Source of the DNA: Thecaphora thlaspeos
Lineage: Eukaryota > Basidiomycota > Ustilaginomycetes > Urocystidales > Glomosporiaceae
Reading direction: 5' to 3'
Length of the DNA stretch: 64,000 nt
Assembly: GCA_900291925.1 (NCBI GenBank)
Contig: UWYS01000003.1
Location: forward strand, 124,001 to 188,000
Numbering within the stretch: the stretch's first letter is position 1; each line of letters opens with the position of its first letter. Shown piece by piece: positions 14,906 to 55,724 of the stretch. The notes beneath the pieces are model-generated. The model was not told the origin of the DNA and made no database searches. It saw only the letters and a program-made list of their open reading frames with translations. The position numbers and the translations under genes are program-made.

Positions 14906-17900
14906 TCACTCGAGCGTCAGGTCCGAGATGGCCTTGTTAAGCGCCGCGCTGGCGGCTACGAAGCTGCTGACGTTCGAGTCGCCCGTCGGCTTGGGTGGCG
15001 GCCTGGTGGCTGTCGCCGTAGATGCTGCCGTCGTCGACCCGTTTGCAGCCCGGTCACCGCCGCCGCCTATGTCGTCGGCCTTGCGTGGAAAGACGCTGCT
15101 GCCGAGCGGAGAGGACGAGAACGGCACGGCGTACGAGCTCGGGAGGTTGGCCGTCGCAAAGTGCTTCCCGTGCGGGCTGTGGCTATCACGACGTTCTGCA
15201 GCGACAGCCGAAACAGATCCGGCCGAAGTGAGCGCGCTATCGGCCCAGCCGCCGCTGCCACTACCGCTGGCCGGTCTCGATCCGGTGCTGGAGGGCGTGG
15301 CAGCCGTTGGCGAGGTTGATGCCTCGCCCGCCGCAGAAGAGGCAGCAGCAGCAGCAGCAGCAGCAGGTGCGCTGGCGACGGCATTGGTCGGGGCCTGCTG
15401 TAGAGGTGTGAAGCCGAGCCGGGATAGGGCGGCGCAGACGTCGACGCGTTCCAGCGGCTTGGCCAGGACGGCGTCAAAGACGCTCCCGGCGGCGTCAATG
15501 GGCTCGCCGCGGTCAAACGAGGCGAGGGCGACGATCGGCGTCTGGGAGTTGGCGTTCCGCGTTGACTTGACCATCCTTGCGACATCCTGCCCGTTGACGA
15601 TGGGCAGCGTTACGTCGACAAAGAGGACGTCGAAGCGGTCGTCTCCCATGGCCAGCCGGACCGCCTCGGCGCCGTTGCGGACGGCGGTGCAGCGGCACCC
15701 TAGCTTCGTCAATATCGTCTCGAGCATACGCAGCGAGATCGGGTTGTCCTCCGCCACCAGGCACTCGATCGCGTTCTTCTCGACCGCCGCCGCCGCTGCT
15801 GCTGCGTCCGTACCCACTCCCGCGACCACAGACGTGGGCGAGTGCGATGCTGAGTGCGCGTTGGGAGCTGCTACGCTAGAGCGCTGCTTGCTTGCCTCCG
15901 ACCAATGCGGGGGGAGAATGGGCCTCTCCGAGACACTGGCAGACATGGTCCTCAGCCGGGAGGGCAACGAGTTCCGGCGCGACGTGCTGTCAGCCTCGGC
16001 GAGCTGCGATCGCTTCCGGTCCACGAACCCGATCACCGCCGACGACGCTGTAGGCATTGCCGTCGCGAGCAGCGATGGCGACACCATCGGCGAGTGCGAG
16101 AAGAGGGCGGCGAGCTCCGAGGGCCGCCGCGCGTGCGACGAAGCCTGGAGCAGGCCGGAGGGTGACGTAGGCGCGGTCGATCGCGACGGCGTCGAGCCCT
16201 GCGAGGAGACGCTCTGCGATGGCGAGGGCGGTCCGCCGACGGTCTGGAGTTGGGCGCGCATCATGGCCTTGCCCTTGGCCGAGAAGCTGCGGTGGCGGGC
16301 ATGCATGCTCGGCTGCTCGAGCGTCTGGGACAGCGGCGGCAGCTGGTCCTCTCGCATCTTGCGGATTACCTCGTCGTTGGCCTGCTTGAGCACGGGGAGG
16401 TTCTTGTAGCTGAAGTTCCCAAAATCGTCGGTCTGCGAGCGGTCGCCGATCTGGGTTCGCTCGATACAGCTGCGCATCCTCGAGAAGGGCGGCCGTCCGG
16501 TCTCGATGACCTTCTTGCCCTCGAGCGCCCGGGCGAACTCCTGCGTGCTCTGGGCGTGCTCCTCGTCAAACTCTTGGTGGACGGCGCCGCGGAGGTCGAA
16601 GTAGTCGGTCGACTCCGGGTCCGTCACCTGGGGCACAAAAGGACCCTCGTCGGCGGTGACGTTGTCCCAGTCGATGCCCTCGAAGAACGGATGGCGCTTG
16701 ATCTCGTCGACGCCATTGGAGCCGAGCCGCGACTTTGGATCGGTGCACATCAGCGACTCCATCAGGCTCCGGGCTTCTGTCGAGACCTCGACCGAGTCCT
16801 CCTCCCAGTCGATCCGGCGCGACAAGATGTTGTCAAAGACCTTCTCCGGCATGTCGGCGTGGAATGGCGGGAAGCCGTAGAGGAACTCGTACAGGATCAC
16901 TCCGAGCGCCCAGAAGTCGACGGCAAAGTCGTCCATGCCGATGCCCAGGATGCTCTCCGGGGCGAGGTAGTCTGGCGTTCCGACGAAATGCTTCGGCTGC
17001 GACGGGCTGGCCTCGTTGGTGAGCAAGGGGTGCGAGCCAAAGGCTACTCCATGACTGTCGATCCTGGCCGAAGGAAGAGGTTTAGGTGCGCTCGAGTTGC
17101 CCTCGGTCTCGCTGCTGTCGCTGACGTCGGTCGACGAGCTGACGATTCGCCCGCGCTGCTGGGCGGAGAAGAAGGGCTGGTTGCGCATGAGGCCAATGAT
17201 GCCAGGGGTTGATGGCGAGAATGAAGCGGCCGTGTCGCCGGCCGAAGCTCCCGCGGGCGTTGAGAGCGACGGTTGATGAGCGCTGGAGCCCGGGGACGAG
17301 GAGCTGGGCAGCGATCCGGCAAATGAGTCCGTGCGTTGCCCCGTGCCCGCAATCCCTCCGAGCGGACTGCCGACGCTCCCGATCTGCCCGGTGAGCGCAG
17401 CGGGCCGGGTCTGACGGCCGAGGAGCCCAATCTTGGAGAGGCCAAAGTCTGTCAGCTTCAGGTGGCCCTTTTGGTCAATCAGCACATTGTCCGGCTTCAG
17501 GTCCCGATGGACGACGCCCTTAGAGTGGAGGTGCTCGAGGCCGACGACGATCTCGGCGAGGAACTGGCGCGACCATTCTTCCGGCAGGCCGCCGAGCACC
17601 TTGCACAGCGAGGCGCAGTCACCGCCGGGCAGGTACTCCATCACGAGGTAGAGATAGTCGGAGCTCTGGAATGTGAAAAAGAGTTTGACGACGAACGGCG
17701 ACTGATTCTGCGTCATCAGGATCATCCGCTCGGCCTTGACGTTGGTGATCTGGTTCTTGGCAATCATGTCCGACTTCTTGAGTACCTTGATCGCGTAGTA
17801 GTCGCCCGTGGTACGCTTCTTGGCCAGGAAAACCGAGCCGAACGCGCCCTTGCTGATGGGCTTGAGGATGTCGAAGTCCTTGATCGACGAGGCCGTCGGC

Positions 17901-20900
17901 TTCGAGGAAGGTGCGGTCGGCGGTAGGCGTGGCGAGAGTGGCATGGAGCCGGCCATCGGGCTCCGATGCGAGAGGCTGGGTTTCCGCAGGCTCCTCGATG
18001 ACACGCCAAGCGACTCGGACAGCGGGTACCGCGGCGAGAGCGGCGGCGTCTGCAGCAGGGCGTTGTCGATGGGGAGGGGCAGATGCGAGGCGCGTCGCGA
18101 GCGGCTGGCGGATCGATGTTGCCGCGGCGCGTGGTCCAGGCTCTCGACGGCGAGTAGCGAGTCTGAATGCCGCGAGCTAGCGGCGTGGGAGGCGGCGCCT
18201 GCATGAGCGCCGCCGGAGGGGATCGGAATCGGAGCAAGATTAGATGAACCGCCCATCTGCGCTTCGACCGCCGGGATGTCGTCCTCTGCCGTGCCCGGCG
18301 CCCCGGTAGTGGCGCCAAGCAAGCTGGAGTGCGGAAGCGGCGGTACTTCTCTGTCGTCGCGGTCGAGGAGTATGCCAGACGTCATGTCACCGTCATCTTC
18401 CTTTTCCTCGCGCTGCTGTCGACCTTGTTCGCTCTTCAACCCGGAGCCGAGGTCCGCCGCGAGCGGCGTGCGAGCCGGGCTGACCTTCGCCATGTTCCTG
18501 TGGCTCGCAGCATCGGCAATCGAGGCCGAGATTGGTCTGACGACGGAAGACGATGCCGGCGTCGGGGTGGGCGCGGCCTCGGCGGCGGTATCGGGTCCGG
18601 AGTCTGTCTGCGCCGCCGCCACCGCCACCGCCACCGCCTTCGCCTTCGCCGTCGCCTCTGTTTGCTCGCCTACGACGTAGCCACTGGACGAGGAACCGCA
18701 TGGCGCCTCTGCATCGTCGTCCCTCTCGTCGTCGTCATCGTCGTCATCCTCCGCTGACTCGCTCCCTTCGATGTCGACCTCGTCTCCGCTGCGCTCCGGC
18801 GAGCTGCTGTGACTGCCCGATGCCTCGTCCCCTTCCGAGACGGCAGCCAGGGCGGCCTCGACGCTGACTTCCCACTCCTGCCGCACCGTCTCGACATAGA
18901 CGATGGTGTTGAGCATTCGGTTGACGGCGCTCAGCTTGCCGCGCATCGCCGCCTCGACGTCGGTCAGGAGGGTGTCGATGGCGGCGTCCTCGGCCGGAGT
19001 GCGACGCCACTGCTTGACGTTGACCACCTTGTTCTCCGACGTCGGCGAGAGGAGGCGCTGCTTCTCGATCGGTTCGTCCGCCTGGTCCTCCTTGGTGGCC
19101 GGCGTCGAGATCTCGAGCGCCACCTGCAGTATCTCGAGTGCAGCGTCGAGCACCCGCATGTGCGCCTTGCGCAGCGTGGCCGCGTTCGGCTGCCGCGGTA
19201 GTACCGACCGGTTGATACCCTCTAGCGCAGAGGGAGGTTGGTTCGAGGCTGGCGGCGTCGTCAGCTGAATGCCGCGGTACTCAGCCGCAGGCCCGCCGGT
19301 CTGCTCGCGCGTTTCTTCCAGGCGCTTGATGATCGCCTTGACGGTACGGCGCAGCTCGTGCAGGCTCTCGTTGCACTCTCCGATCTCCATCTCGAGGCGG
19401 TGCACCTCGTTGCAAATCTCGGAGTGCTTTTCAAAAAACCAAGCGGGGATGTCGCGCTCGCAGATGCGGCAAAGCACCGGCTCGACCGAGATCGATGCGA
19501 CGTGGGCCACCGTTGCGGTCGGGTCGTCGAGGAAGGTGGACGCAGCGCGCCCGCTCTTGGGTGCGACGGCGTCGGGCAGGTCAGCCTCGGGCTCCGGCGG
19601 AGCGCTCGGCTTGAAGACCCACATCGTGTGCGAGGGGACGCCATTGTGGCGATCGTGCATCAGCATGCCCTTGCCTTCCATCTCTTGGAAGTAGCGCGTC
19701 TCATCGGCAACGCTGCCAGCCTCGGAGGCGTCGGAAGCCGTCGAGCTCGAGAGAGTGGCGCGCTCGATACGAAGGCGGAAGATGGCCTCGATAGTGTGCG
19801 ATTCATTGGCCTGCAGCTGGCTCGACGCCTCGGCAAAGACGCTGACGTCGCCCGCCGCCAGCAGCTCGGCGATCGGGACATCGTAGAGCTCGGAAGGGTC
19901 GGAGCCGATCACGAGCTTCCAGGCCGGGCTAAGATAGAGGAAGCACTGATCCTCCAGGCTGAGCTCCATCAGCACGTTGATGCCTGCGTCGTGCTTCTCC
20001 CGAGGGACCTCCTTGGCGGACTGATGGGCTGGCGCTTCCGTCGCCTCCGCCTCGGCAACAGCTTCAGCATCGACATCGGCGTCAGTCGCGGCTGACGCCG
20101 CCGCCTCGCGATCGACGATGATCGTATCGCCATCGCCGGCCGTATGCGCGGACGAGGCCGACAGCTCTCTGAACATGGGCGCGATCGCACCGGCGTTGGC
20201 ACCCACAGCGGCGCCAGCATGGGCCCCGAGGGCGGGAGAGTTGGAAGCGCTAGTGGCGCCCGGGGCGATCTGCTCCTCCATCTCGGCGGCCGTCGTGCTG
20301 CGCTTGCGCGTCGGGCCGTTGCTAAACGCGGTGCCCCAAAGATGCGGTGGAGCCCTGCGCTCGCCGCCCTCACCGTCGCCCTGCTGTCCACCCAGGATGA
20401 AGCGGATCGGCTCGGCATCGTGCTCGTCGTCGTCAAAGTTCCAGAAGCCCTTTTCAGCCTCCCACCATTCGACGACTCGGCTGAGACCGGCGACGGCAAG
20501 CAGCAGCCGGACGTACCAGCCTCGACCGGGCCAGTCCGGGTGCTCCTCCCAGTCGCGACCAACTGACTGAACGTTGGCGATGATCTGCGAACACGTCCCC
20601 TCGCGCGCGATGATTGAGTGGATCGACGTGTCGAGGACGTCCATGGCCAGGGCGACGAGCTCAGAGAGGGCAGGGATCCAAGGCTGGACCTTGCCCTCGT
20701 CTGCCGGCAGCGGGCGGCTTCGCCTGGCCGGCGAGAGGTGCGGCGAGCTGGAGGCTACCGACAGGCTCGACGTCATCGCGACGCCGGGCAGCGGCGAGTG
20801 AGAGCGTGAGGTGGGCCTTGAACTGGACGCAGAGCGACTCGTGCGCCCGATCGACTTGGCGCGGCCGAGCGGATTCAGCTTCGACGGTCGAGGCGGGTTC

Positions 20901-23900
20901 GAGATTCCCGCCGGACGTCCGACCACTTGATGCGTCATGCCCGGAGGCGGAGGAGCTGGCAGTCGGTACTCGCGCGCTGTGAGCGTCGGCGTCGTGTCCC
21001 GGTTGCCGCCCGGGGTCCGACCTCCGAGAAGTGACTGCTGTGGCACACCGGCTGTATCAAGGGCGGGGATGGGGCGTGGACGCGGCAGACAGAAGGAAGT
21101 GAAAGCCGTAAGGGGCAATTGTGAGCAATCATAACTCAACGCTTTGGCCGCACGCGGCGGCAAACAACACAGCGCCGCGACTTACCTTGAGGCGTCTCAT
21201 CTGGATCGAAGCTCTGATCGTCGATCTCGTCCAAAGGCAGACGGTCTGTGTTGGACGTGGACTCGCTCGATGCAAACGAGCTGGCGCTGAAGTCGCGATA
21301 CATCGTGGCGGAACCGCTGCGGCTGCCGGTGCCGGTGCCGGTGCCGGTTCCGTTACCGTTGCCATCGCTGTGGATGCTGTCGCTAAGGTCGAGCTGCTGC
21401 GAGAGCTCGGCATCGCCCTCAAAGACCTCTTCCAACTCGCCATCGTCATCGTTGTCGCCGCTGCCGCCAAGGGCGCGCTGATTGTTTTCCTCCTCCTGCC
21501 GCTCGAGGTCCATCTCGACAAACGAGTTGATGGCGGCGACAATCTTGCGAAGCTCCTTGTCGCAACTCTCCTTCGAGGTCGCCAGGCGCTGGCGAATGTG
21601 CTGGTGGATCGAGTAGATCGTCATCTCCTTGGACGTTAAGGCGGCGCCGGTGCGGCCCCTGCCGCGCCTAGCTCCCTCCGGCTCCGACTCGTCCTGGCTG
21701 GCGGTGCCGCTGGCGTTGCCATCAAACACTGAGTGTCTCTTTGACGACGTTCCGCCCTCCCCGTCGCTTGGCTTCCACGCCTGCGAAAGGCGCCGGCGTC
21801 GAGCGTCCGGAGATCGCGACACCTTAGACCGGACCTGGTTCGGTGATGAGGCGACGACGTCAGGGGTGCCCGCTGGACCCTCCGCGTCATCGTGGCCATC
21901 CTTAATCGGGGTAGGGGCCGAAGGCGGCCCACTGAGCGGCGACAGAGGTTGACGGGCATCGGCGGCCTGCCCCTGCGACAGCGTCGAGAAGCAGGAACCC
22001 TTGTTGTCGAGGCTCTCGAAGGCGCCCGCATCAAAGGTGCTGAAGCCTTTCTCCAGCTGCAGCGACAGCTTCGGCTGGTGCTGGCGCCGCTTGATCGAGT
22101 CCTTGCCTGTCGTCTCAGCGCTGCCTCGGGACGAAGCCGAGCTGCGTCGGTCGTCCAGGACGGTGGTCGCGCCAGCAGTCGGCTTGGTGGCAGCGGCCAC
22201 GGCGGCGCTGCCGGCGGAATTGACGGCTTCGACGGGAACGCCCTGTTGCTGGCTTGCGGCCTCGATCTTCTCGAGCAGATTTTGAGCCGAAGACGAAGCG
22301 CGCAGTGTGTGCACAGACTCGGGTACCTTGCCCCCGAGCGTGCCGGTCTGTGAACGGCTGTGGCGGGCGAAGGCGTCCAACGCGAGCGGCGATGGCTCGG
22401 CGGGGACGCTTTCAACCTCGATGCGGACCGCGCTCCAGCCGGAAACGGAGATGGGGTCGAGCTGGTCCTTGGTCCGTCGCGGCGACGAGAATGACTGCGC
22501 CGTGGGCCTCGTAGGCCTCTGGGCCTGAAGCAGGCGTGATGGTGCTGGTGGCGGCGCGTGCAGCTGTGGCTGAGATGCGCGTCCGCCCGTATCGCCAGGG
22601 TGGCCGCCGAAGCCAGACTTGACTGCGCTCCACCACGCTTCGATCTTGCCGCCGAGCTGACGCCGCTTGCTTCGCGAAGCCTGCTGCCGGGTCAAGCTGT
22701 TCGGCGACGCATATGAACCAGCGCCAGTCACCCGCGAGGTGATCGGCGACAGCGAGATCGTACGTGGCTTGTCTATGCCGAGACGATGGACAATCGAAGA
22801 AGTCGCGCCGCGACTGCCGCTGCCACGGGCCCCGTGGCCGCCGCCGCCGCTTTCAGGGTTCGCAACGGTGAAGCTGCGGTGCGTATCGGCGTACGGCCGA
22901 GGGGGGCCGCGTACGACGGGAGCGGCCGAAGGCTTGCGGATCGGCCCAAGCGGCTGCTGGCTCGCGGACCGTCCAATCGTCCGCTGCTGCGACGAGTTGG
23001 CCGTACTGAGTTTGGCCATCGCACCTTCGAGCTCCTGCAGGTCGTCGCCCTGAGGCTCCGACTGGGGCTGGGGCTGGGGCAAGCGCTGCGACGGGGCCCT
23101 CTGCCTGGCCAGCGGGTCCGAGACCGATCTCCGACCTTTGGCGGCTGCCTCGCCCAGGAGCGAAGACGCCCCTAGCTCGTCGTCTGCATGCAGAATCCCC
23201 GGCTCTCCGACCTCGGCGGCCGGCGCCGGCTCGGTCTCGGCGTCCGAGTCGTCCTCGGTGGCTTCATTATCGCTGGCTCGGCCCTCGGCCCGCGCCTCGG
23301 CCTCCCTCTCCGATTGCAGCTTGGCTTCCTTCATCTTCCGGTACTCGTCAAGCCAGTCGACCCACTCGATCTCCTTTGTGCCGCCGAGATTAGCAAAAGC
23401 GGAAGGGAGGTCGGCACCATCAGCATCGGAGCTCCCGGAAGGTCCGCCGTGCTGCGACTCGGTGCTTGTGATCGAGTCGGCCTGCGACGGCCTCCGGGAT
23501 GGTCCGGGCGTGTCGGGAGGAGCCGGGCTGCGGAAGATGCCGATCGTCGTGCCACGACGACCGAGGGCGATCGACGAAGATGCCGCATTGAGCTCGCCCC
23601 GCTGCATCGCGCCGTACGAGCCCCATTGAGGAAGAGCATCGTCGGCGTCGACAGCCCCGATCGCGGTCCTGGTCTCTGTCCCTGTCCCAGTCCGGGATCT
23701 GTCGATGCCGCCATCGCGCGAAGTCGTTGATGACGACGACGGTCTCAGGTTCTGCACCTTCCACTTTTGCATCTTGGCGTTGCGACTCTGGATGATGATC
23801 CGAGCGTACTCGTCGGTGCCCGTCATCTGCTGGTTGGAAGATGAGAGCCGGCCGGGCGTCAGCAGGTTGGCGTGCTCCGGCCTGAGAGAGCGACTCATCG

Positions 23901-32906: not shown

Positions 32907-33388
32907 AGACGTCGACATCGTCGTTGCGTCTGCCAGCCTGCCTCTGCTACCTCGACGGTCGAAGCAAGAATCCCGCCTGTCGATCTCGGGCGAGAAGGGA
33001 ATACGCGACAGGGTGACTTGCTGCTCGTGTGAGGCGGGCCATCAAATAGAAGCTCTGTTCAAGTCGCGCAAAATGACCGACTTGAAAAAAGGCCCCAGCA
33101 GGCCGCAAATTAGAAAGCCACTGGGCGAGGGGAAAAAAGAAAAAAAGAATGGGCGAGTGCAGCGGGGCCGGAAGAAAGCGAGGCCTGACCCACGACTACA
33201 TCCACTGGCCTTCGCTCGGCACCACCTCCAACTCCATCTCCATCTCCATCTCCATCTCCATTTCCATTTCCATTTCCATCTACCATCCCTCCGCGCCCAT
33301 CCGATTCGACACGACATGACATCAGGGTCCGTCCTTCTCCTCATCCTGATCCCTCTCTCATTGATCCACACGGAATCGCCCTCTCAGA
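32907..33388. other. Spacer with promoter and leader of uS5m gene
   Basis: 482 bp. Apart from an A-rich patch near 33,080-33,165, the stretch ends in a pyrimidine-rich leader containing a hexanucleotide repeat at 33232-33279. No coding signal was seen. It should hold the promoter of the mitochondrial ribosomal protein gene. Confidence 0.4.
33232..33279 (+). repeat. 8 x 6-bp tandem repeat (CTCCAT then TTCCAT)
   Basis: Five CTCCAT units are followed by three TTCCAT units, ending 110 bp upstream of the uS5m start codon. The C-to-T difference is confined to the last three units, so the array probably grew from two founder units. It lies in the presumed 5' untranslated region or core promoter. 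Confidence 0.85.
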
Positions 33389-34684
33389 ATGCTGTCACGG
33401 ACCGCTACTAGCGCCGCTTCGGCGCTCCCTTCGACATGCTTGGCGGCGGCGGCGGCGGCCAAGCGCTCCTTTTCAGCGTGCGGTTCCCGCAGCAACAGCA
33501 ACTCGTCCTTCTCGTCCTCCGCCTCGTCGGCGTCCTCTCCGGTCGCACAGTCTCCTTCCTCCGCTTCGTCGAGCAACGCCGCCGCCTCTTCCTCTTCGTC
33601 GTCGTCCTCAACACCACAACAGCAGCAGCAGAACCAACAAGCGAAGAAAACGATCCCCTCTGACTCGCCGATCCTCGACAAGGTGTTACCGCTCTCCTTT
33701 CCTTCAAAGACGTTGCGCTCTTTTCCCTCTCTGCTGCGCTTCGCCGACCCGGTGCTCGATCCGCACCCTTCCAGCGTCCACTGCTCGCAGCCTATCAGCC
33801 GGACCCCCTACCCTTCCAGCGTGACGATGTACAACGAGCCCAAGCACTTTGAGCCCGCGCCGCCGCGCGCCGAGTCGCTCGTCCTCTCTGGCAGCTCAGA
33901 CTCGGACGAGGTCAATTCGGAGCGGTACCTCTCGACCGTCACGCCGCTCTCGGTGCAGGAGGTGCGCAACCTCCACCGACACGCCATCGTCGTCAAGCGA
34001 GTTGTTCACATGACGACAAAGGGCAAGGACTCGAGCATGTACGCCCTCGTCATCGCCGGCAACGGCAACGGGCTCGTCGGCTACGGAGAGGGCAAGGATA
34101 CCAACGCCTCCAAGGCCGGGAGGAAGGCCTTCCACCAGGCCGTCAAGAACTTCGACAGCGTCGCCATCCACGTCGGCAGCGACGGCTCGCGCACCGTAGA
34201 GACACAGCTCGAGGCAAAGTGGGGCGCTTCGACCGTCATCCTCCGACCCAGGCCTGCAGGTGAGTTCGGTATGCCGTCGCCGAGGGGCGCGAGAGGAAGA
34301 CGGCGACGAATGACCCATTGCAGAGGCCAATACTCCTCGGCCCCGCCGGCTATGTATGCTGACCCTCTACCCCTTCTCGTCACCTACTCGCCATCACCCT
34401 TCGCAGGCTTCGGTCTCCGCGTGCCGCCCGTCATCCACGCCCTCTGCCGCTCAGCCGGCATCACCGACCTGAGCGCCGCCATCCTTGGCTCTACTAACCC
34501 GGTCAACGTCGTCAAGGCCGCGCTGCAGATCCTCTGGGGCGGTGCCGCGCCGCTCGGCCTCGGCGGCGCCAAGGAGGGCAATCTTAGGAGGAAGGACAAG
34601 GGTCAGGGCATGCGCGGACGCGTCGACATTGAGCGGAGCAGAGGCAGGAGGATCCAGGAGGTCCGTCTCGACGGTGGCAGGTAG
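33389..34684 (+). CDS. MRPS5: Mitochondrial small-subunit ribosomal protein uS5m
   Basis: Exons 33389-34259 and 34407-34684 (phase 1, GTGAGT...CGCAG) give 382 aa. The N terminus (MLSRTATSAASALP..., rich in Ser, Ala and Arg, almost no acidic residues) looks like a mitochondrial targeting peptide, followed by a Ser/Gln-rich linker to about residue 85. The uS5 N-terminal RNA-binding fold begins at HRHAIVVKRVVHMTTKGKD and continues through VAGNGNGLVGYGEGK-like sequence; the C-terminal S5 domain begins at GFGLRVPPVIHALCRSAG and includes STNPVNVVKAALQIL. It is a core protein of the mitoribosome small subunit, involved in decoding accuracy. The 147-bp intron is a multiple of three with no in-frame stop, so unspliced RNA would encode an insertion rather than a truncation. 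Family assignment is firm. Confidence 0.9.
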   Translation: MLSRTATSAASALPSTCLAAAAAAKRSFSACGSRSNSNSSFSSSASSASSPVAQSPSSASSSNAAASSSSSSSSTPQQQQQNQQAKKTIPSDSPILDKVLPLSFPSKTLRSFPSLLRFADPVLDPHPSSVHCSQPISRTPYPSSVTMYNEPKHFEPAPPRAESLVLSGSSDSDEVNSERYLSTVTPLSVQEVRNLHRHAIVVKRVVHMTTKGKDSSMYALVIAGNGNGLVGYGEGKDTNASKAGRKAFHQAVKNFDSVAIHVGSDGSRTVETQLEAKWGASTVILRPRPAGEFGMPSPRGARGRRRRMTHCRGQYSSAPPAMYADPLPLLVTYSPSPFAGFGLRVPPVIHALCRSAGITDLSAAILGSTNPVNVVKAALQILWGGAAPLGLGGAKEGNLRRKDKGQGMRGRVDIERSRGRRIQEVRLDGGR

Positions 34685-35124: not shown

Positions 35125-35756
35125 TCATACGTTGACCTTGGTCAGCTTTTTCAGGGTCCTGTTGACGGTCGTATGGGTGTTGTCCTTCTTGGTGTAGCCG
35201 ACCCAGGCCACCTCTACAATAGCGGGCGCGAGCCCGGGGAAGGTAAAGGACGGGTGAAGATGAGCTCCATCCCACGGTCAGCGAATGGCCTCCATCTGCT
35301 CGAGCCAGGCGATGGGTTCGCAGAACGGCGGCGGCAAACTCACGGTCACCGGCGTCGTTCAAGTGGAAGGCCATGATGACGCCCTCTGCCTTGTTCGCGC
35401 CGATACTAAACAGGACTGTAGACGTCGGCGATGGAGGTGGCGGCGGCGGTGGAGTCGTGAGTGGCGATGAAGAAGCATCAGCGTAGTGAGGGTGCGGGGG
35501 ACGACTCGGTATCGAAGGTACGCCAGAGACGAGACGAGATGGAGCGTCTTGCTCGGCGACGACAGCGAGAGCTTCCCTTTGCGCCTACTTACCCCTGTCG
35601 CCAACTGTAATGGTGCGAGGGAAGAGATGGCGAGAAAAAACCAAGCGGTGGCCTTGTCAGCGATGTGAGAAAGCTTGAGCGGTAGCCCTGATCGCTCTCT
35701 GACCTCGAGAAGTTATGCCCGCCGTTTTCACTCTTGAACATTTCCGTAGAAACCAT
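35125..35756 (-). CDS. Uncharacterised 61-aa protein, paralogue A of a head-to-head pair
   Basis: Three exons on the minus strand: 35756-35732, 35415-35344 and 35213-35125, totalling 186 nt including stop. Exon 1 encodes MVSTEMFK and splits an Ile codon (A + TC) over a GTGAAA...CTACAG intron of 316 bp. Exon 2 encodes LFSIGANKAEGVIMAF and onward. Exon 3, after a GTGAGT...TGTAG intron of 130 bp, encodes QVAWVGYTKKDNTHTTVNR and ends KLTKVNV. No ORF over 60 codons reveals it. The model rests on colinear alignment with the plus-strand gene at 36907: matching residues, same lengths between blocks, and identical splice phases. No signal peptide or membrane segment is seen; the pattern suggests a small beta-alpha-beta-alpha-beta fold (inference). 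I do not recognise the family. The first donor is weak, so exon 1 is the least certain part. Confidence 0.72.
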
Positions 35757-36906
35757 CCTAGATGCTAGACGTGATGTCACCAGTGGGTTTTCGCGCTGGA
35801 GAGAAGATGAGTGTAAGAGGGGTAGCTTGGTCGGTGGGAGCGTCGATGAGGGCTAAGCGTGTGTGTATGCGTGTTGTGGGTGTCGTCGAGTCCGGAAACG
35901 AGATAGGACGTTAAGCGGAGGATGTGGAAGGAAGGAAAGAAGGGGAGGGAAGGACGGAAAGGGACCGTGGCGAGGAGAGGTATTCTGGGGGTGGCGTCCT
36001 GAGGCGGCCAGGCAACGCGAGGCGAAGGCGAAGGAGCCTTCCAACTCAAGCCCGCTCGAGCCAGGACGTAGCCGCGGTCGACGCTCAGTCCAGCCCAGCC
36101 CGGCCAGCCTCTGCTTGTCGCGGGTCCAGCCAGCGGACGCACGCACAAGCCATGGCCAGCGAAGAGGGCCTCGCGACCCTTGCAGAGAGACTCGACCTGG
36201 TGAGGCGGCTCTCTCCCGCTTGCCTCTGCCTCTGGGTCTGACTCAGGTGCTGCCCCCTCCCTGTCCTGCTGCCCCAACCGCTCTCCTCCGAAGTCGGTGG
36301 GGCGGCGGCATCATCGCCTGCCGACCGCCCTGTCTAGCCTCTCTCAGCCTGAAAGCGAGCGACCGAGCGTGAGCGCGATCGCGACGAGGCCCATTTCTCA
36401 CGAGGTCGCGCCCAGGCCGAGCGAGGCGACGCTGACCTCGAATCCAGCGGGGTGGCGGCGGCTGCCGTTGAGCTTGCGCGCGCCTCCAGGGATGGCAAGG
36501 CAGGCGGGCGGGCTGGCCGGCGACCCTGGCGCTCGATGGAGTCCCGAGGCGCGCCGCCGCCGGCGCTTCTGGCCAAGGCTTGCTTTTGACTGACTCGCGC
36601 ACTGGGAGGGGGAGGCCGTGTGCTGGGCTCCCAATCGCGGCGGTGGCTCGAGGCTGAGCAGCCGCCACTCGCCCCTCCCTTTTAAGGCCTGCCGTCTTCC
36701 CTCCCTCCTCGCCACCCGCTCCCTCCTCCCCTTCTCTCCTCCTCGCATCCACATCCGCCCCATCGAGTTGCAATCTGCCGAGTCCGTTCCCTTGCCACAT
36801 CCTCACATGCAACCATCTTCTCAACAACCTCCCAAAGCACGCACCTCCGCTCCTCTTGCAAAAATCCACCTGCAACCAAGCCAACACCCCGTCCACCCCT
36901 TTCGAC
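35757..36906. promoter_or_regulatory. 1.15-kb bidirectional promoter region of the paralogous small-gene pair
   Basis: The two small paralogous genes are transcribed away from each other from the ends of this region, so it must contain both promoters. The right half (about 36,660-36,900) is strongly C/T-rich on the plus strand, like other leaders here. A lone exon-like element lies inside: ATG at 36152 (context AAGCCATGG) followed by 16 codons ending at a GTGAGG donor; no continuation could be found. No defined binding site was recognised. Confidence 0.5.
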
Positions 36907-37638
36907 ATGAGCACCACTACCTACAGAAGTGAGAGATCGAGCAACGTCGGCTTCTGAGCCAGCTCAGAACGTCGGCGTCGCGGACTGACAGCAGCGCCAC
37001 ATGAGGACCACGGTACTGACCGAGCTTGCTCTCTCTTCAATGCTCTTGTCTCTGCCGCCGGGAATCCCTCGCCACCTCGCAGTCGGCGATAAGGGTAGGG
37101 AGCAGGCCATCGGGGTTGCCGCCGCCATCTTCGTCGGCGGCAGAGAGCCAGATTCACCTTGCTCTGCTGAGATGGCACTGATGTCGCTTTTGCCTCTCGC
37201 ATTCGCTCCTCCCTCCGCTTCTGCCCTCTTTGTCGCCATCGCGACGCCTCCGCCTTCGCCTCCACCAGTCCTTTTCAACATCGGCCAGCACGAAGAGGAA
37301 GGCGTCATCAAGGGCTTCGAGGGTGGGTACATCAGACGTCGGGGCGAGGCAGGAACGCTTCAGGCTATTTGCTGCCAATTTCGCTGCTGACTTTCGACTC
37401 TCGGCGGTGATCATCGATGTATGCGCGCTTCAGAAAATGCCAGCCATGAACAAGTCGCCCTGATCGGCTACGTCAAGAAGACCGACAGCCAGCCCACCGT
37501 GATCCACCGCCGCCTCGGTGAGTACGACGAACGGCCACCAATCTAGTCTGCCTGGAAGCGCCACGAAGCATGCTGAGCAACCGCCCCGACTTCTGTTCCC
37601 CTGTGACATCCCCAGAGTCTCTCACCAAGGTCACTTAG
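36907..37638 (+). CDS. Uncharacterised 60-aa protein, paralogue B of a head-to-head pair
   Basis: Four exons: 36907-36928, 37269-37322, 37434-37517 and 37616-37638, 183 nt including stop. The 60-aa product begins MSTTTYRILFNIGQHEEEGV, continues through a block beginning IKGFEENASHEQVALIGY, then VKKTDSQPTVIHRRL, and ends ESLTKVT. Introns are 340, 111 and 98 bp, with donors GTGAGA, GTGGGT and GTGAGT and CAG acceptors. The first two introns fall at exactly the same codon and phase as in paralogue A (Ile split A + TC; third-exon block aligned at QVA). The third intron is present only here. Introns occupy about three quarters of the gene. There is no targeting signal, membrane segment or recognised domain. 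Conservation of residues and intron positions in a second copy is strong evidence that it is real; function unknown. Confidence 0.78.
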
Positions 37639-52500: not shown

Positions 52501-52982
52501 GCCCTCGCGCCACCCCTTTGATCGCCTTCCCTCGCCTTCCCTCGCCTTCCCCCCTGACCTGGCCTTCGCTTTCTTGCCTGCTCATCACCACCATCATCCT
52601 GCCTGTCAACGCCTCCCCCCTCTGTGTCTCCTGCCTTCGGTTGATCCGATCCTTCCCTCCCTCGGCTCCTCGTATATTAGGCGCTTGACTTCTGCCGTGC
52701 AGAGTTCCATCCTTTCCTTCTCCCTCATCAGCCACCAACACCTCCCTCTCCCTCCCTCCTACCCTCCCTTCCTCGCACCTCTCCCTGGCCTCCCTCTCGA
52801 CCGCCTCCCCTCTTCGAATCTACTTTGATAGGACACTCGTTGAGCTCCCCGGCATCGCTCCTTCTCAGTCTTTTCCCTCCTTGCAAGGTAGCATACACAT
52901 CGCCCACCGCGGCATAGCATCTGTCCAACATCAATAGAACCCCTTCCCTCCATCACCACCACTACTACCACAATCCATCGCC
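49523..52982. other. 3.5-kb gene-poor spacer
   Basis: No supported gene. From 49,560 to 51,300 base composition is more A/T than coding DNA and frames are short. From about 51,060 to 52,290 there are many TACATA/TATGTA words. A 375-codon minus-strand frame (52322-51195) covers this part, but its amino-acid composition is random and it has no domain. From about 52,430 to 52,980 the plus strand is strongly C/T-rich, including a 3 x 10-bp unit at 52522-52551, and is the probable promoter and long leader of the secreted Ser-rich protein gene. Confidence 0.45.
52522..52551 (+). repeat. 3 x 10-bp tandem repeat (TCGCCTTCCC)
   Basis: Three adjacent copies lie in the pyrimidine-rich leader region of the secreted Ser-rich protein gene. 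Simple tandem duplication. Confidence 0.75.
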
Positions 52983-55724
52983 ATGGCTCCCATCGCCAGG
53001 ACCGTCTGCATCGCCCTCGCGGCGATCGCCGTCGCCGCTGTCGGCCCTCAGCAGGCTGCGGGCAACCAACTCAACGCGCAACACGCTTCCGCCGGCGGAA
53101 ACGCGATCGTCAACAACCTCCCTCTCCACCGCCGCATGCAGCGCAAGGTGCGCAGGCACGACGGCGGCGCCACCACCACCTCGACGAACCAGTCCTCCAA
53201 CAGCCAGTCGTCGAGCAGCCAAAGCAGCGAGAGCTCCTCGAGCGAGTCAGCCAGCAGCAGCAGCAACGAATCGAACGCCAGCAGCGAAAGCACCTCGACC
53301 GATGGTAACGGCGAGACGACCTCGTCTAAGGATTCCTCGAGCGAGTCGTCCGGCTCCCAGTCGTCCAGCAAGGACGCCCAGAACTCGTCGAAGAGCGACT
53401 CTGCCGACAGCTCCAGCACCAGCGCCTCGTCCACTACCACGAACGGCGATGGCTCCTCCAAGTCGAGCAGCAGCGACACCAGCCACGCCGACAAGTCGTC
53501 CGACTCCAAGGACAGCAAGTCCAGCTCGGCCCAGTCCAGCAGCAACGACAGCAAGCAGCAGTTGAGCTCGACCAACACCACGGGCAACGGCCAGAGCAGC
53601 AGCTCCAGCAGCTCCGGCAAGCAGAGCTCGTCGCAGCAGGATAGCAAGGACTCGGCCTCGGACAGCGCCTCGCACTCGGAGAGCAGCAAGGACAGCGCCT
53701 CGACCACGGTCTCGGCCAACTCGGGCAAGGGATCGTCGTTGCAGGCTTCTGAGAACTCGCAGTCGTCTGGCTCCAATGACTCCACGAGCTCGTTGTCCAA
53801 CTCGGCGGCGAGCAGCTCGTTGAGCAAGGACCAGTCGTCGTCCGCGTCGTCGTCGGTCGGTTCCAGCTCCCAGGGCACCACGGGCAGCTCGTCTTCGGGC
53901 AGTGCCCAGACCGGAGCCGCCGACTGCGACGAAAACGGTAACCCGATTGGCTCCAGCTCCGGCTCAGACTCCAAGGACTCGTCGTCGCAGGACAATTCGA
54001 GCTCCAACTCGGGCTCCAACTCGGCCTCTTCGTCGCAGAACACCAACGCTAGCAAGGACTCGTCGTCCGAGAACAGCTCTGGCTCTTACAAGGATTCGTC
54101 GTCGGAGAACAGCACCGGCTCCCACTCTGGCTCCTCGGTCACCGACTCCGGCTCGTCCAAGGGCTCATCTGAAGCTAGCCAGGGCTCATCGTCGCACAAC
54201 TCGGGCTCCAGCCAGGGATCTTCGGAGAACAGCTCCAGCGCTGGTAAAGGCTCGTCATCGGAAAACAGCTCCGGCTCGTCCAAGGGATCGTCGTCGCAGA
54301 GCCAGGACTCCTCGCAGACCTCCGCCTCCGACGAGGCTGACTGCGACGAGGATACCCAGACCGGCTCCGGCGCCAACTCTGGCTCCGACAAGGAATCGTC
54401 GAGCAACCAGGGAGCGTCGAACAACCAGGGAGCGTCGAGCAACCAGGGAGCGTCGAGCAACCAGGGAGCGTCGAGCAACCAGGGAGCGTCGAGCAACCAG
54501 GGAGCGTCGAGCAACCAGGGAGCGTCGAGCAACCAGGGAGCGTCGAGCAACCAGGGAGCGTCGAGCAACCAGGGAGCGTCGAGCAACCAGGGAGCGTCGA
54601 GCAACCAGGGAGCGTCGAGCAACCAGGGAGCGTCGAGCAACCAGGGAGCGTCGAGCAACCAGGGAGCGTCGTCCCACAACAGCTCGGGCTCCAACTCCGG
54701 ATCATCTCACTCCGGGTCTAGCTTTTCTAACGCCGGTCACTCGTCCGAGGGCGCGTCGTCGTCGTCGTCTTCGGCCAACAACAGCGCCTCTTCCTCTGGA
54801 AAGGAGGCCAGCGGATCGTCGTCGACCAAGAACACCGACTCGTCCTCCAACAACAGCGCTTCCTCGAACGACGATGACGATGAGGAAGACTGCGACGAGG
54901 GCAAGGACGACGATGAGGACGCCACCACTACTGCCACGACCGAGGACGACTGCGATGATGATGGCGACAGCACCTCGACCGCCGCCGCTTCTTCCTACAC
55001 CCCTCACGTGAAGCTTGCCTCGACCTCCGGCTCGAGCGACTCCGCCAACACTGACAAGAATCAGCAGGCCTCGGGCAAGACGTCTTCGGACTCGTCGAAG
55101 TCGTCCTCGGACTCGAAGTCGTCGTCCGATTCGAAGTCCTCGAAGGCGTCTGAGTCCTCCAACTCGTCCGAGTCCTCCAACTCTTCGAACTCGTCGGACT
55201 CGCAGAGCGGCAAGGGCCAGAAGCCCGCCACAAAGTCCTCGTCGAGCACTGCCATCAGCGTCGAGGCGACCCCAAAGACGCAGCAGGCCAGCACTGACAA
55301 GGACAGCGGCAGCCAGCAGCAGGGCAGCGAGAGCCAGTCTGCCTCATCGTCTCAGCAGTCGTCGTCGTCGTCCAAAGAAGAGTCGTCGTCGTCGTCAAGC
55401 AGCAGTAGCTCGAGCAGCATGGTCACCGGAGGCTACGCCACCTACTACATGCAGGGAGGCAACGCTGGCGCCTGCGGCTCATACAACCCCGATACGGCCA
55501 TGATCGCCGCCCTGCAGAGTTCGACCTACGCAAACGGCTCCAAGTGCGGCAAGAAGGTCCGCATCTTCCGCAAGGACCAGCCCAGCAAGTCGGTCACCGT
55601 CACGGTCGCCGACGAGTGCCCCACTTGCGTCAACACTAAGTCGATTGACCTCTCCAAGGCCGCCTTTGAGAGCATCGCCACCGTCTCCGAGGGCATGGTC
55701 CCGATCGAGTGGGAGTGGATCTAA
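52983..55724 (+). CDS. Secreted Ser-rich protein with C-terminal double-psi beta-barrel (RlpA/expansin-like) domain
   Basis: Intronless, 913 aa; the ATG has a perfect context (ATCGCCATGGCT). Residues 1-26 are a signal peptide (MAPIARTVCIALAAIAVAAV, cleavage near AAG-N), followed by a basic stretch (RRMQRKVRR) that could be a Kex2 site. Residues about 60-810 are dominated by Ser with Asn, Gly, Lys, Asp, probably heavily O-mannosylated, and include 15 SSNQGA-type hexapeptides. The last 100 residues form the folded part: GGYATYYMQGGNAGACGSYN, then VTVTVADECPTC and IDLSKAAFESIA, the DPBB pattern of RlpA, barwin and expansin-like proteins. Such fungal proteins lie in the wall or matrix; some bind polysaccharide or inhibit plant papain-like proteases. 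No GPI signal is seen: the chain ends MVPIEWEWI. Catalytic activity cannot be claimed; wall or apoplast location is inferred. Confidence 0.88.
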   Translation: MAPIARTVCIALAAIAVAAVGPQQAAGNQLNAQHASAGGNAIVNNLPLHRRMQRKVRRHDGGATTTSTNQSSNSQSSSSQSSESSSSESASSSSNESNASSESTSTDGNGETTSSKDSSSESSGSQSSSKDAQNSSKSDSADSSSTSASSTTTNGDGSSKSSSSDTSHADKSSDSKDSKSSSAQSSSNDSKQQLSSTNTTGNGQSSSSSSSGKQSSSQQDSKDSASDSASHSESSKDSASTTVSANSGKGSSLQASENSQSSGSNDSTSSLSNSAASSSLSKDQSSSASSSVGSSSQGTTGSSSSGSAQTGAADCDENGNPIGSSSGSDSKDSSSQDNSSSNSGSNSASSSQNTNASKDSSSENSSGSYKDSSSENSTGSHSGSSVTDSGSSKGSSEASQGSSSHNSGSSQGSSENSSSAGKGSSSENSSGSSKGSSSQSQDSSQTSASDEADCDEDTQTGSGANSGSDKESSSNQGASNNQGASSNQGASSNQGASSNQGASSNQGASSNQGASSNQGASSNQGASSNQGASSNQGASSNQGASSNQGASSNQGASSNQGASSHNSSGSNSGSSHSGSSFSNAGHSSEGASSSSSSANNSASSSGKEASGSSSTKNTDSSSNNSASSNDDDDEEDCDEGKDDDEDATTTATTEDDCDDDGDSTSTAAASSYTPHVKLASTSGSSDSANTDKNQQASGKTSSDSSKSSSDSKSSSDSKSSKASESSNSSESSNSSNSSDSQSGKGQKPATKSSSSTAISVEATPKTQQASTDKDSGSQQQGSESQSASSSQQSSSSSKEESSSSSSSSSSSSMVTGGYATYYMQGGNAGACGSYNPDTAMIAALQSSTYANGSKCGKKVRIFRKDQPSKSVTVTVADECPTCVNTKSIDLSKAAFESIATVSEGMVPIEWEWI
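54400..54673 (+). repeat. Minisatellite: 15 x 18-bp in-frame tandem repeat
   Basis: Fifteen copies of an 18-bp unit (GAGCAACCAGGGAGCGTC) encode the hexapeptide SSNQGA. All are identical except the second, where GAGC becomes GAAC (SNNQGA). The array is in frame within the Ser-rich region of the secreted DPBB protein. Near-perfect identity implies recent expansion or homogenisation, so copy number probably varies between strains. Confidence 0.95.

What the first reader, a model, noticed from the sequence alone, without database searches (positions are those of the whole stretch)
35125..37638. Head-to-head pair of 60/61-residue paralogous genes hidden by introns
Two tiny genes on opposite strands encode colinear proteins: ILFSIGANKAEGVI versus ILFNIGQHEEEGVI, QVAWVGYTKKD versus QVALIGYVKKT, and LTKV ends. 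They share the positions and phases of two introns, including an Ile codon split A + TC. Introns make up about three quarters of each gene, so ORF scans miss them. Neither matches a family I know. A third intron exists only in the plus-strand copy, suggesting intron gain or loss after duplication. Divergent copies sharing about 1.15 kb of upstream DNA could be co-regulated. A small two-helix alpha/beta fold is inferred.
Basis: partly seen in the sequence, partly recalled or inferred. Interest (0 to 1): 0.8.

Follow-up and report, generated by a model that had tools for sequence, protein, structure and literature searches.

The report
Tiny paralogous gene pair with microexon

Summary
The divergent, intron-rich gene pair is real at sequence level. 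The two long coding exons of each copy match the corresponding exons of the other copy better than anything else in the window. Codon usage is gene-like in one frame only, and paralogue dN/dS is about 0.32.

The gene model is incomplete. 'Intron 1' is homologous between the copies over most of its length and encloses a candidate 12-nt microexon, phase 1 on both sides: plus 37083-37094, minus 35604-35593, adding IGDKV/IGDRV. The proteins become 64 and 65 aa and open with ...[YF][RK]IGD[KR]VLF. This suggests a small all-beta SH3/Tudor-like barrel of Hva1 type, not a two-helix alpha/beta fold. The fold is inferred only. No Pfam family reaches its cut-off, and membership in Hva1_TUDOR was tested and not met.

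'Two shared introns' needs correcting: the two introns around the microexon are shared; intron 2 shares its phase but lies six codons apart. The host is an ustilaginomycete relative (Sec8 85% identical to Pseudozyma flocculosa). No homologue was found, using the model without the microexon. No transcript data were available. Microexons are already in print for another basidiomycete.

The parts
36907..36928 (+). plus copy, exon 1 (MSTTTYR + first base of Ile codon)
   Evidence: colinear with minus exon 1
36929..37082 (+). plus copy, intron 1a (154 nt, GTGAGA...TCGCAG, CTGAY 63 and 94 nt before the 3' end)
37083..37094 (+). plus copy, candidate 12-nt microexon TCGGCGATAAGG (adds IGDKV with split codons)
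37095..37268 (+). plus copy, intron 1b (174 nt, GTAGGG...CACCAG, CTGAY 87 nt before the 3' end)
37323..37433 (+). plus copy, intron 2 (phase 1, 111 nt)
37434..37517 (+). plus copy, exon 4 (NASHEQVALIGYVKKTDSQPTVIHRRL)
37518..37615 (+). plus copy, intron 3 (phase 1, 98 nt), absent from the minus copy
37616..37638 (+). plus copy, last exon (SLTKVT stop)
35732..35756 (-). minus copy, exon 1 (MVSTEMFK + first base of Ile codon)
35605..35731 (-). minus copy, intron 1a (127 nt, GTGAAA...TTACAG, CTGAY 52 nt before the 3' end)
35593..35604 (-). minus copy, candidate 12-nt microexon TTGGCGACAGGG (adds IGDRV with split codons)
35416..35592 (-). minus copy, intron 1b (177 nt, GTAAGT...CTACAG, CTGAY 62 nt before the 3' end)
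35214..35343 (-). minus copy, intron 2 (phase 1, 130 nt)
35125..35213 (-). minus copy, last exon (VAWVGYTKKDNTHTTVNRTLKKLTKVNV stop)
35757..36906 (.). shared 1,150-bp divergent upstream region

Best explanation
Two protein-coding paralogues arose by an inverted duplication between the (probably mitochondrial) ribosomal protein S5 gene and SEC8 in a smut-related fungus. Each encodes one small domain of 64/65 aa, assembled across a 12-nt microexon that is phase 1 on both sides. The microexon supplies the I-G-D-[KR]-V opening of the first strand of what is most likely an all-beta SH3/Tudor-like barrel, similar in kind to Hva1/DUF2945 proteins. It would act as a small binding adaptor for a protein or nucleotide ligand. 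Shown from sequence: paralogy, coding signal, purifying selection, canonical splice sites, and the microexon candidate conserved between copies. Inferred: splicing in vivo, the fold, and the binding role.
For: Paralogy: reciprocal best matches of the two long exons and null windows. In the 20.6-Mb genome 2 of 13 pattern matches had 0 mismatches, these two copies; the other 11 had 2 mismatches and the reversed control pattern gave 10 matches.

Coding: codon log-odds +30.9 and +30.7 bits in frame. The other forward frames gave -14.5 to -55.2 and the reverse frames +1.8 to -82.1. 0 of 327 overlapping non-coding pieces from this locus reached either value (maximum 9.3); 69 held-out pieces of neighbouring genes average 22.0. 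GC by codon position is 0.54/0.34/0.80 and 0.45/0.35/0.82. dN/dS is about 0.32, bootstrap 0.12-0.66, 24 of 300 replicates undefined.

Microexon: the two 'intron 1' sequences align with score 44 (plus positions 75-339 of 340, minus 35-300 of 316, microexon included), against a maximum of 27 over 356 comparisons with unrelated real pieces. Of 15 same-length candidate exon pairs the microexon pair scores best, 22 against 13 for the next. 2 of 300 column shuffles that keep the homology reach 22. Of 3000 random window pairs 53 reach 22 anywhere and 14 at a position within 40 nt, a limit I chose after seeing the pair. The 3 of 12 differing bases are two silent changes and one K/R change. CTGAY lies 52-94 nt before all four half-intron acceptors and in 6 of the 7 introns, against 12.4% of AG sites in the window.

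Fold: profile comparison with five Hva1/DUF2945 sequences gives P 0.004 (probability 8%) with the microexon and P 0.13 without. With 85 sequences it gives P 7e-4 and probability 27% over the N-terminal 23 columns. Hva1 of Cryptococcus is a 75-aa protein predicted to have 3 exons, with a solved five-stranded structure compared by its authors to Tudor domains (PMC5008624, abstract and passages).
Against: No transcript or peptide data. No homologue in about 5.8 billion proteins, although the database holds Sec8 of related smuts; those searches used the model without the microexon and see close relatives only. No Pfam family passes its cut-off: the best is Rad9_Rad53_bind, E 0.13, for the plus copy; none is listed for the minus copy. 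Five PDB sequence searches gave no barrel match. Bit scores against a home-built Hva1 profile are low: 5.2 and 9.2, reached by 3 and 2 of 500 shuffles each (489 and 491 scored). The minus protein's best stretch there is residues 34-63, not the microexon region, and global alignment is poor (probability 1.6%). The most conserved 20-column window of intron 1 is 37025-37072 (85%), not the microexon window (80%). The one independently supported intron, in SEC8, has no CTRAY motif, nor has plus intron 3, so that motif is not diagnostic here. The donors GTAGGG (plus microexon) and GTGAAA (minus exon 1) differ from the usual GTRAGT (recalled). Intron 2 and the 3' flanks show no detectable homology between copies.
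Confidence: 0.7

Rival explanations
1. One reading: exon 1 is spliced directly to the next long exon, there is no microexon, and the 60/61-aa proteins have a small alpha/beta fold.
For: All stated junctions are GT-AG and in frame. Skipping the microexon keeps the frame, so this could exist as an isoform. The SEC8 intron shows that the CTGAY motif is not diagnostic.
Against: The 12-nt exon has acceptor, donor, phase and peptide conserved in both copies, and each half-intron has its own branch-point-like motif. The product would lack the G-D-x-V opening.
Confidence: 0.15
2. The microexon is the 3' end of an alternative first exon (a second promoter inside intron 1), not an internal exon.
For: In the plus copy an in-frame ATG lies upstream and contiguous, at 37040.
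Against: The minus copy has no in-frame ATG there. Exon 1 is colinear in both copies. The CAG before the microexon is present in both.
Confidence: 0.07
3. Degenerate or non-coding remnants: the loci are pseudogenes or spliced non-coding RNAs, for example snoRNA hosts.
For: No homologue found. Introns are large relative to exons.
Against: Stop-free frames with gene-like codon usage and dN/dS below 1. No Rfam family reaches its gathering score in the window; at E<=5 the locus gives two matches, snoU36a (E 0.55) and CRISPR-DR36 (E 2.8). Intron 1 RNA is not unusually folded, z -1.04 and +0.22.
Confidence: 0.08

Closest known systems
Hva1_TUDOR / DUF2945 (PF11160): Cryptococcus Hva1 and small bacterial DUF2945 proteins
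   Same: Size (64/65 aa against 67-70 aa for the four bacterial proteins read, and 75 aa for Hva1, PMC5008624 passages), stand-alone domain, [KR]xGDxV opening, a Gly then Val/Ile after the first strand, C-terminal Leu and Lys. HVA1 is also a small gene predicted to have introns.
   Different: No listing at or near the family cut-off. It lacks the family's central G-x-x-V-x-A-S-x-x-x-P block. The host has two separate matches over the family cut-off, on contigs C13 and C12.
Tudor/SH3-like barrels in general (e.g. Rad9_Rad53_bind, PF08605)
   Same: G-D-x-V-x-[FW] first strand (pattern recalled); sub-threshold Pfam match of the plus protein, residues 7-38.
   Different: E 0.13, below cut-off, and not seen for the minus protein. 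Fold not modelled or solved.
Microexons of P450 genes in the basidiomycete Phanerochaete chrysosporium (PMC1184071, passages)
   Same: Very short internal exons (encoding 2-10 aa; shortest exon 6 bp) in a basidiomycete.
   Different: There in large known enzymes. Here one microexon carries the start of a whole 64-aa protein's domain and is inferred from paralogue comparison.
Switch-like microexon of Trichoderma virens Xlr2 (PMC11121469, abstract and passages)
   Same: A very short internal exon that completes the N-terminal part of a domain.
   Different: 20 nt, alternatively spliced and experimentally shown there. Here 12 nt, frame-preserving, with no transcript evidence.

Membership tests
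Hva1_TUDOR (PF11160) | Profile score above the curated cut-off (24.1 bits) | tested here: not met
   Not listed for either 64/65-aa protein in the Pfam scan at E<=10; 5.2 and 9.2 bits against a home-built profile of 85 sequences. Positive control L022 scores 73.8 bits.
Hva1_TUDOR (PF11160) | N-terminal K-x-G-D-x-V-x-W motif | tested here: met
   RIGDKVLF / KIGDRVLF, with F for W; hhalign local match over 23 columns, probability 27%
Hva1_TUDOR (PF11160) | Central G-x-x-V-x-A-S-x-x-x-P block conserved in the 5 sequences of A4 | tested here: not met
   Absent; alignment A5 puts a 10-column gap before that region in both proteins
Hva1_TUDOR (PF11160) | Five-stranded barrel fold | not testable with these tools
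   A spliced protein is not admissible to structure prediction under its stated rule; not submitted
Microexon | Internal exon of at most 30-36 nt with canonical splice sites | tested here: met
   12 nt, AG before and GT after, in both copies
Microexon | Evidence of selection to keep it | tested here: met
   Same length, phase and near-identical peptide in both paralogues: reached in 14 of 3000 and 2 of 300 null trials. A single pair of copies only.
Microexon | Splicing shown by transcripts | not testable with these tools
   No transcript data held

The most novel reading that the evidence does not exclude
The frame-preserving 12-nt microexon is a conserved on/off switch. Inclusion builds the first strand of a mini-barrel; skipping makes an in-frame protein of nearly the same length with no barrel. 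The two divergent paralogues would be co-regulated from one 1.15-kb promoter. This would be a microexon-controlled miniprotein family so far unannotated in smuts.
Probability: 0.15. Interest if true: 0.7.

Novelty: new variant of a known kind. Interest (0 to 1): 0.4.

Why it matters
Small proteins built across microexons can escape gene finders and homology searches alike. Here comparison of two paralogous introns, with no transcript data, exposes a candidate 12-nt exon and changes the likely fold class. Microexons as such are not new in fungi: PMC1184071 (passages) reports them in P450 genes of a basidiomycete, and PMC11121469 (passages) reports a functional one in Trichoderma and says earlier experimental tests were only in fission yeast. 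What seems new is a whole miniprotein whose domain opening sits in one. The search 'microexon' + 'Tudor' + 'fung' returned 0 papers. 'microexon' + 'Ustilago' returned 6 listed papers, of which I read passages in two, PMC1184071 and PMC3990503. If confirmed, the same comparison could recover other hidden miniproteins.

Tried and rejected
Protein database searches with the microexon-less model gave no homologue: with the two-sequence alignment (no candidate), with both paralogues joined end to end (6 candidates, none at E<=10). PDB sequence searches gave nothing or only weak, inconsistent matches; the Hva1 profile itself found no PDB chain at E<=0.01. Rfam gave nothing at gathering score, and a snoRNA-host idea was rejected. 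RNA folding of intron 1 was unremarkable. Viral-contig scans found no relative. A genome pattern for an unsplit G-D-[KQ]-V-L-F found 3 places, not followed up. Four frames of the neighbouring and intergenic DNA gave no Pfam family. Codon adaptation used a wrong 'high expression' set: one search took the antisense strand of the EF-Tu-like locus L015, one search took the L015 frame and the antisense of GAPDH. One search corrects this with EF-1alpha and GAPDH: plus 0.521, minus 0.486, 75 neighbour pieces 0.412 (sd 0.101), 12 EF-1alpha/GAPDH pieces 0.778, so no evidence of very high expression. The coding score shared that contamination and is replaced. The Sec8 intron row had wrong boundaries; one search gives the right one. 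The start used for the minus gene was wrong and was corrected. L021, a second Hva1 gene split by introns, was inspected for a similar microexon without result. On re-checking, the SEC8 intron control and the earlier basidiomycete microexons made me lower confidence from 0.72 to 0.70 and interest from 0.45 to 0.4.

Full report
What was checked. The window lies in a 20.6-Mb genome of 32 contigs. Neighbouring genes are a ribosomal protein S5 (33365-34684, plus; probably mitochondrial, inferred) and SEC8 (about 42950-38345, minus). The Sec8 frame is 85% identical to Pseudozyma flocculosa and 82% to Thecaphora frezii (best 120 of 445 hits listed), so the host is a smut-related basidiomycete.

The stated introns have GT-AG ends and the frames are open. 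For the two long exons, each copy's best non-self match in the window is the other copy, above simulated windows. Codon usage supports only the proposed frame in both genes. Paralogue identity is 32 of 63 aligned residues, with dN/dS about 0.32 (bootstrap 0.12-0.66, 24 of 300 replicates undefined). A degenerate codon pattern from the conserved QVA..GY.KK region finds these two at 0 mismatches in the genome. The other 11 of 13 matches have 2 mismatches, and the reversed control pattern gives 10. No further close paralogue is visible by that test.

The key correction. Local alignment of the two 'first introns' scores 44 (plus positions 75-339 of 340, minus 35-300 of 316), while 356 comparisons of the minus intron with other real 340-nt pieces reach at most 27. 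Intron 2 and the 3' flanks show no such similarity. Inside the aligned region lies a 12-nt segment bounded by CAG and by GTAGGG (plus) or GTAAGT (minus), at 37083-37094 and 35604-35593. It is stop-free in the phase set by exon 1, 12 nt long in both, and translates (with the split codons) to IGDKV and IGDRV. Of the 15 equal-length AG...GT exon pairs in the two introns it scores best (22; next 13, which uses the same minus segment). Shuffling alignment columns, which keeps the homology, reaches 22 in 2 of 300 trials. Random window pairs reach 22 in 53 of 3000, and in 14 of 3000 at a similar position. The microexon window is the second most conserved 20-column stretch of the intron (80%); the first is at 37025-37072 (85%). 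Both half-introns of both copies have CTGAY 52-94 nt before the acceptor, and 6 of the 7 introns have it, against 12.4% of AG sites in the window. The SEC8 intron, the one independently supported intron here, lacks CTRAY, so this last line is support, not proof. Together these lines make two introns in place of 'intron 1' the best reading.

What the proteins are. With the microexon they are MSTTTYRIGDKVLFNIG... (64 aa) and MVSTEMFKIGDRVLFSIG... (65 aa). The x-G-D-x-V-x-F opening followed by G-V-I and further hydrophobic stretches is typical of SH3/Tudor-like barrels (pattern recalled). Computed support is weak but moves in that direction. Pfam's only match for the plus protein is Rad9_Rad53_bind at E 0.13, and the minus protein has none. 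Profile comparison with five Hva1/DUF2945 sequences gives P 0.004 with the microexon and P 0.13 without. With 85 sequences it gives P 7e-4, probability 27%, over the N-terminal 23 columns; the global alignment has probability 1.6%. Bit scores against that profile are 5.2 and 9.2, reached by 3 and 2 of 500 shuffles (489 and 491 scored); the microexon-less versions score 2.9 and 6.3. The minus protein's best stretch in that search is its residues 34-63, not its start. The central block that defines Hva1_TUDOR is missing. So the pair may work like a small Hva1-type barrel but is not filed as a member.

Mechanism proposed. A single-domain adaptor with no catalytic motif recognised, two diverged copies under purifying selection, transcribed divergently. 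Hva1 of Cryptococcus, a 75-aa protein predicted to have 3 exons, affects metabolism, and its authors suggest interaction with NADPH (PMC5008624, abstract and passages). The analogy is a lead only. Because the microexon and the other internal exons (12, 54, 84 nt plus; 12, 72 nt minus) are multiples of three between phase-1 introns, skipping would preserve the frame and remove the first strand. Whether this happens is unknown.

Intron evolution. Introns 1a and 1b are shared. Intron 2 is phase 1 in both, but six codons apart in the protein alignment, in a loop of equal length, which could be boundary sliding or independent insertion. Intron 3 exists only in plus. No outgroup was available, so gain and loss cannot be told apart.

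Limits. No RNA data, no orthologue, no structure model. The protein searches used the uncorrected model and can only see close relatives.

Noticed in passing
L020 (genome contig C13:667452-667631): A Hva1_TUDOR domain (61.4 bits, over cut-off) in a 227-codon open frame, after a stretch rich in charged residues and Gln/Ser.
   Followed up: partly
L021 (genome contig C12:785357-785464, minus): A second Hva1_TUDOR match (25.8 bits, cut-off 24.1) covering only profile positions 22-56; the 5' part is probably in other exons and was not found.
   Followed up: partly
36807-36932: An upstream ATG opens a frame that overlaps the start of the plus gene and ends at a TGA inside intron 1; it could be a regulatory uORF or chance.
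   Followed up: no
37040: In-frame ATG contiguous with the plus microexon, absent from the minus copy; possible alternative first exon.
   Followed up: partly
14906-21181 (minus): Long frame with a protein kinase domain and a response-regulator receiver domain, resembling Rim15-type kinases (name recalled).
   Followed up: no
52938-55724 (plus): 928-codon frame ending in a DPBB_1 domain.
   Followed up: no
37402-37460 (plus): Sub-threshold snoU36a match (21.7 bits against a gathering score of 45, E 0.55) across the intron 2 / exon 4 boundary; probably chance.
   Followed up: partly
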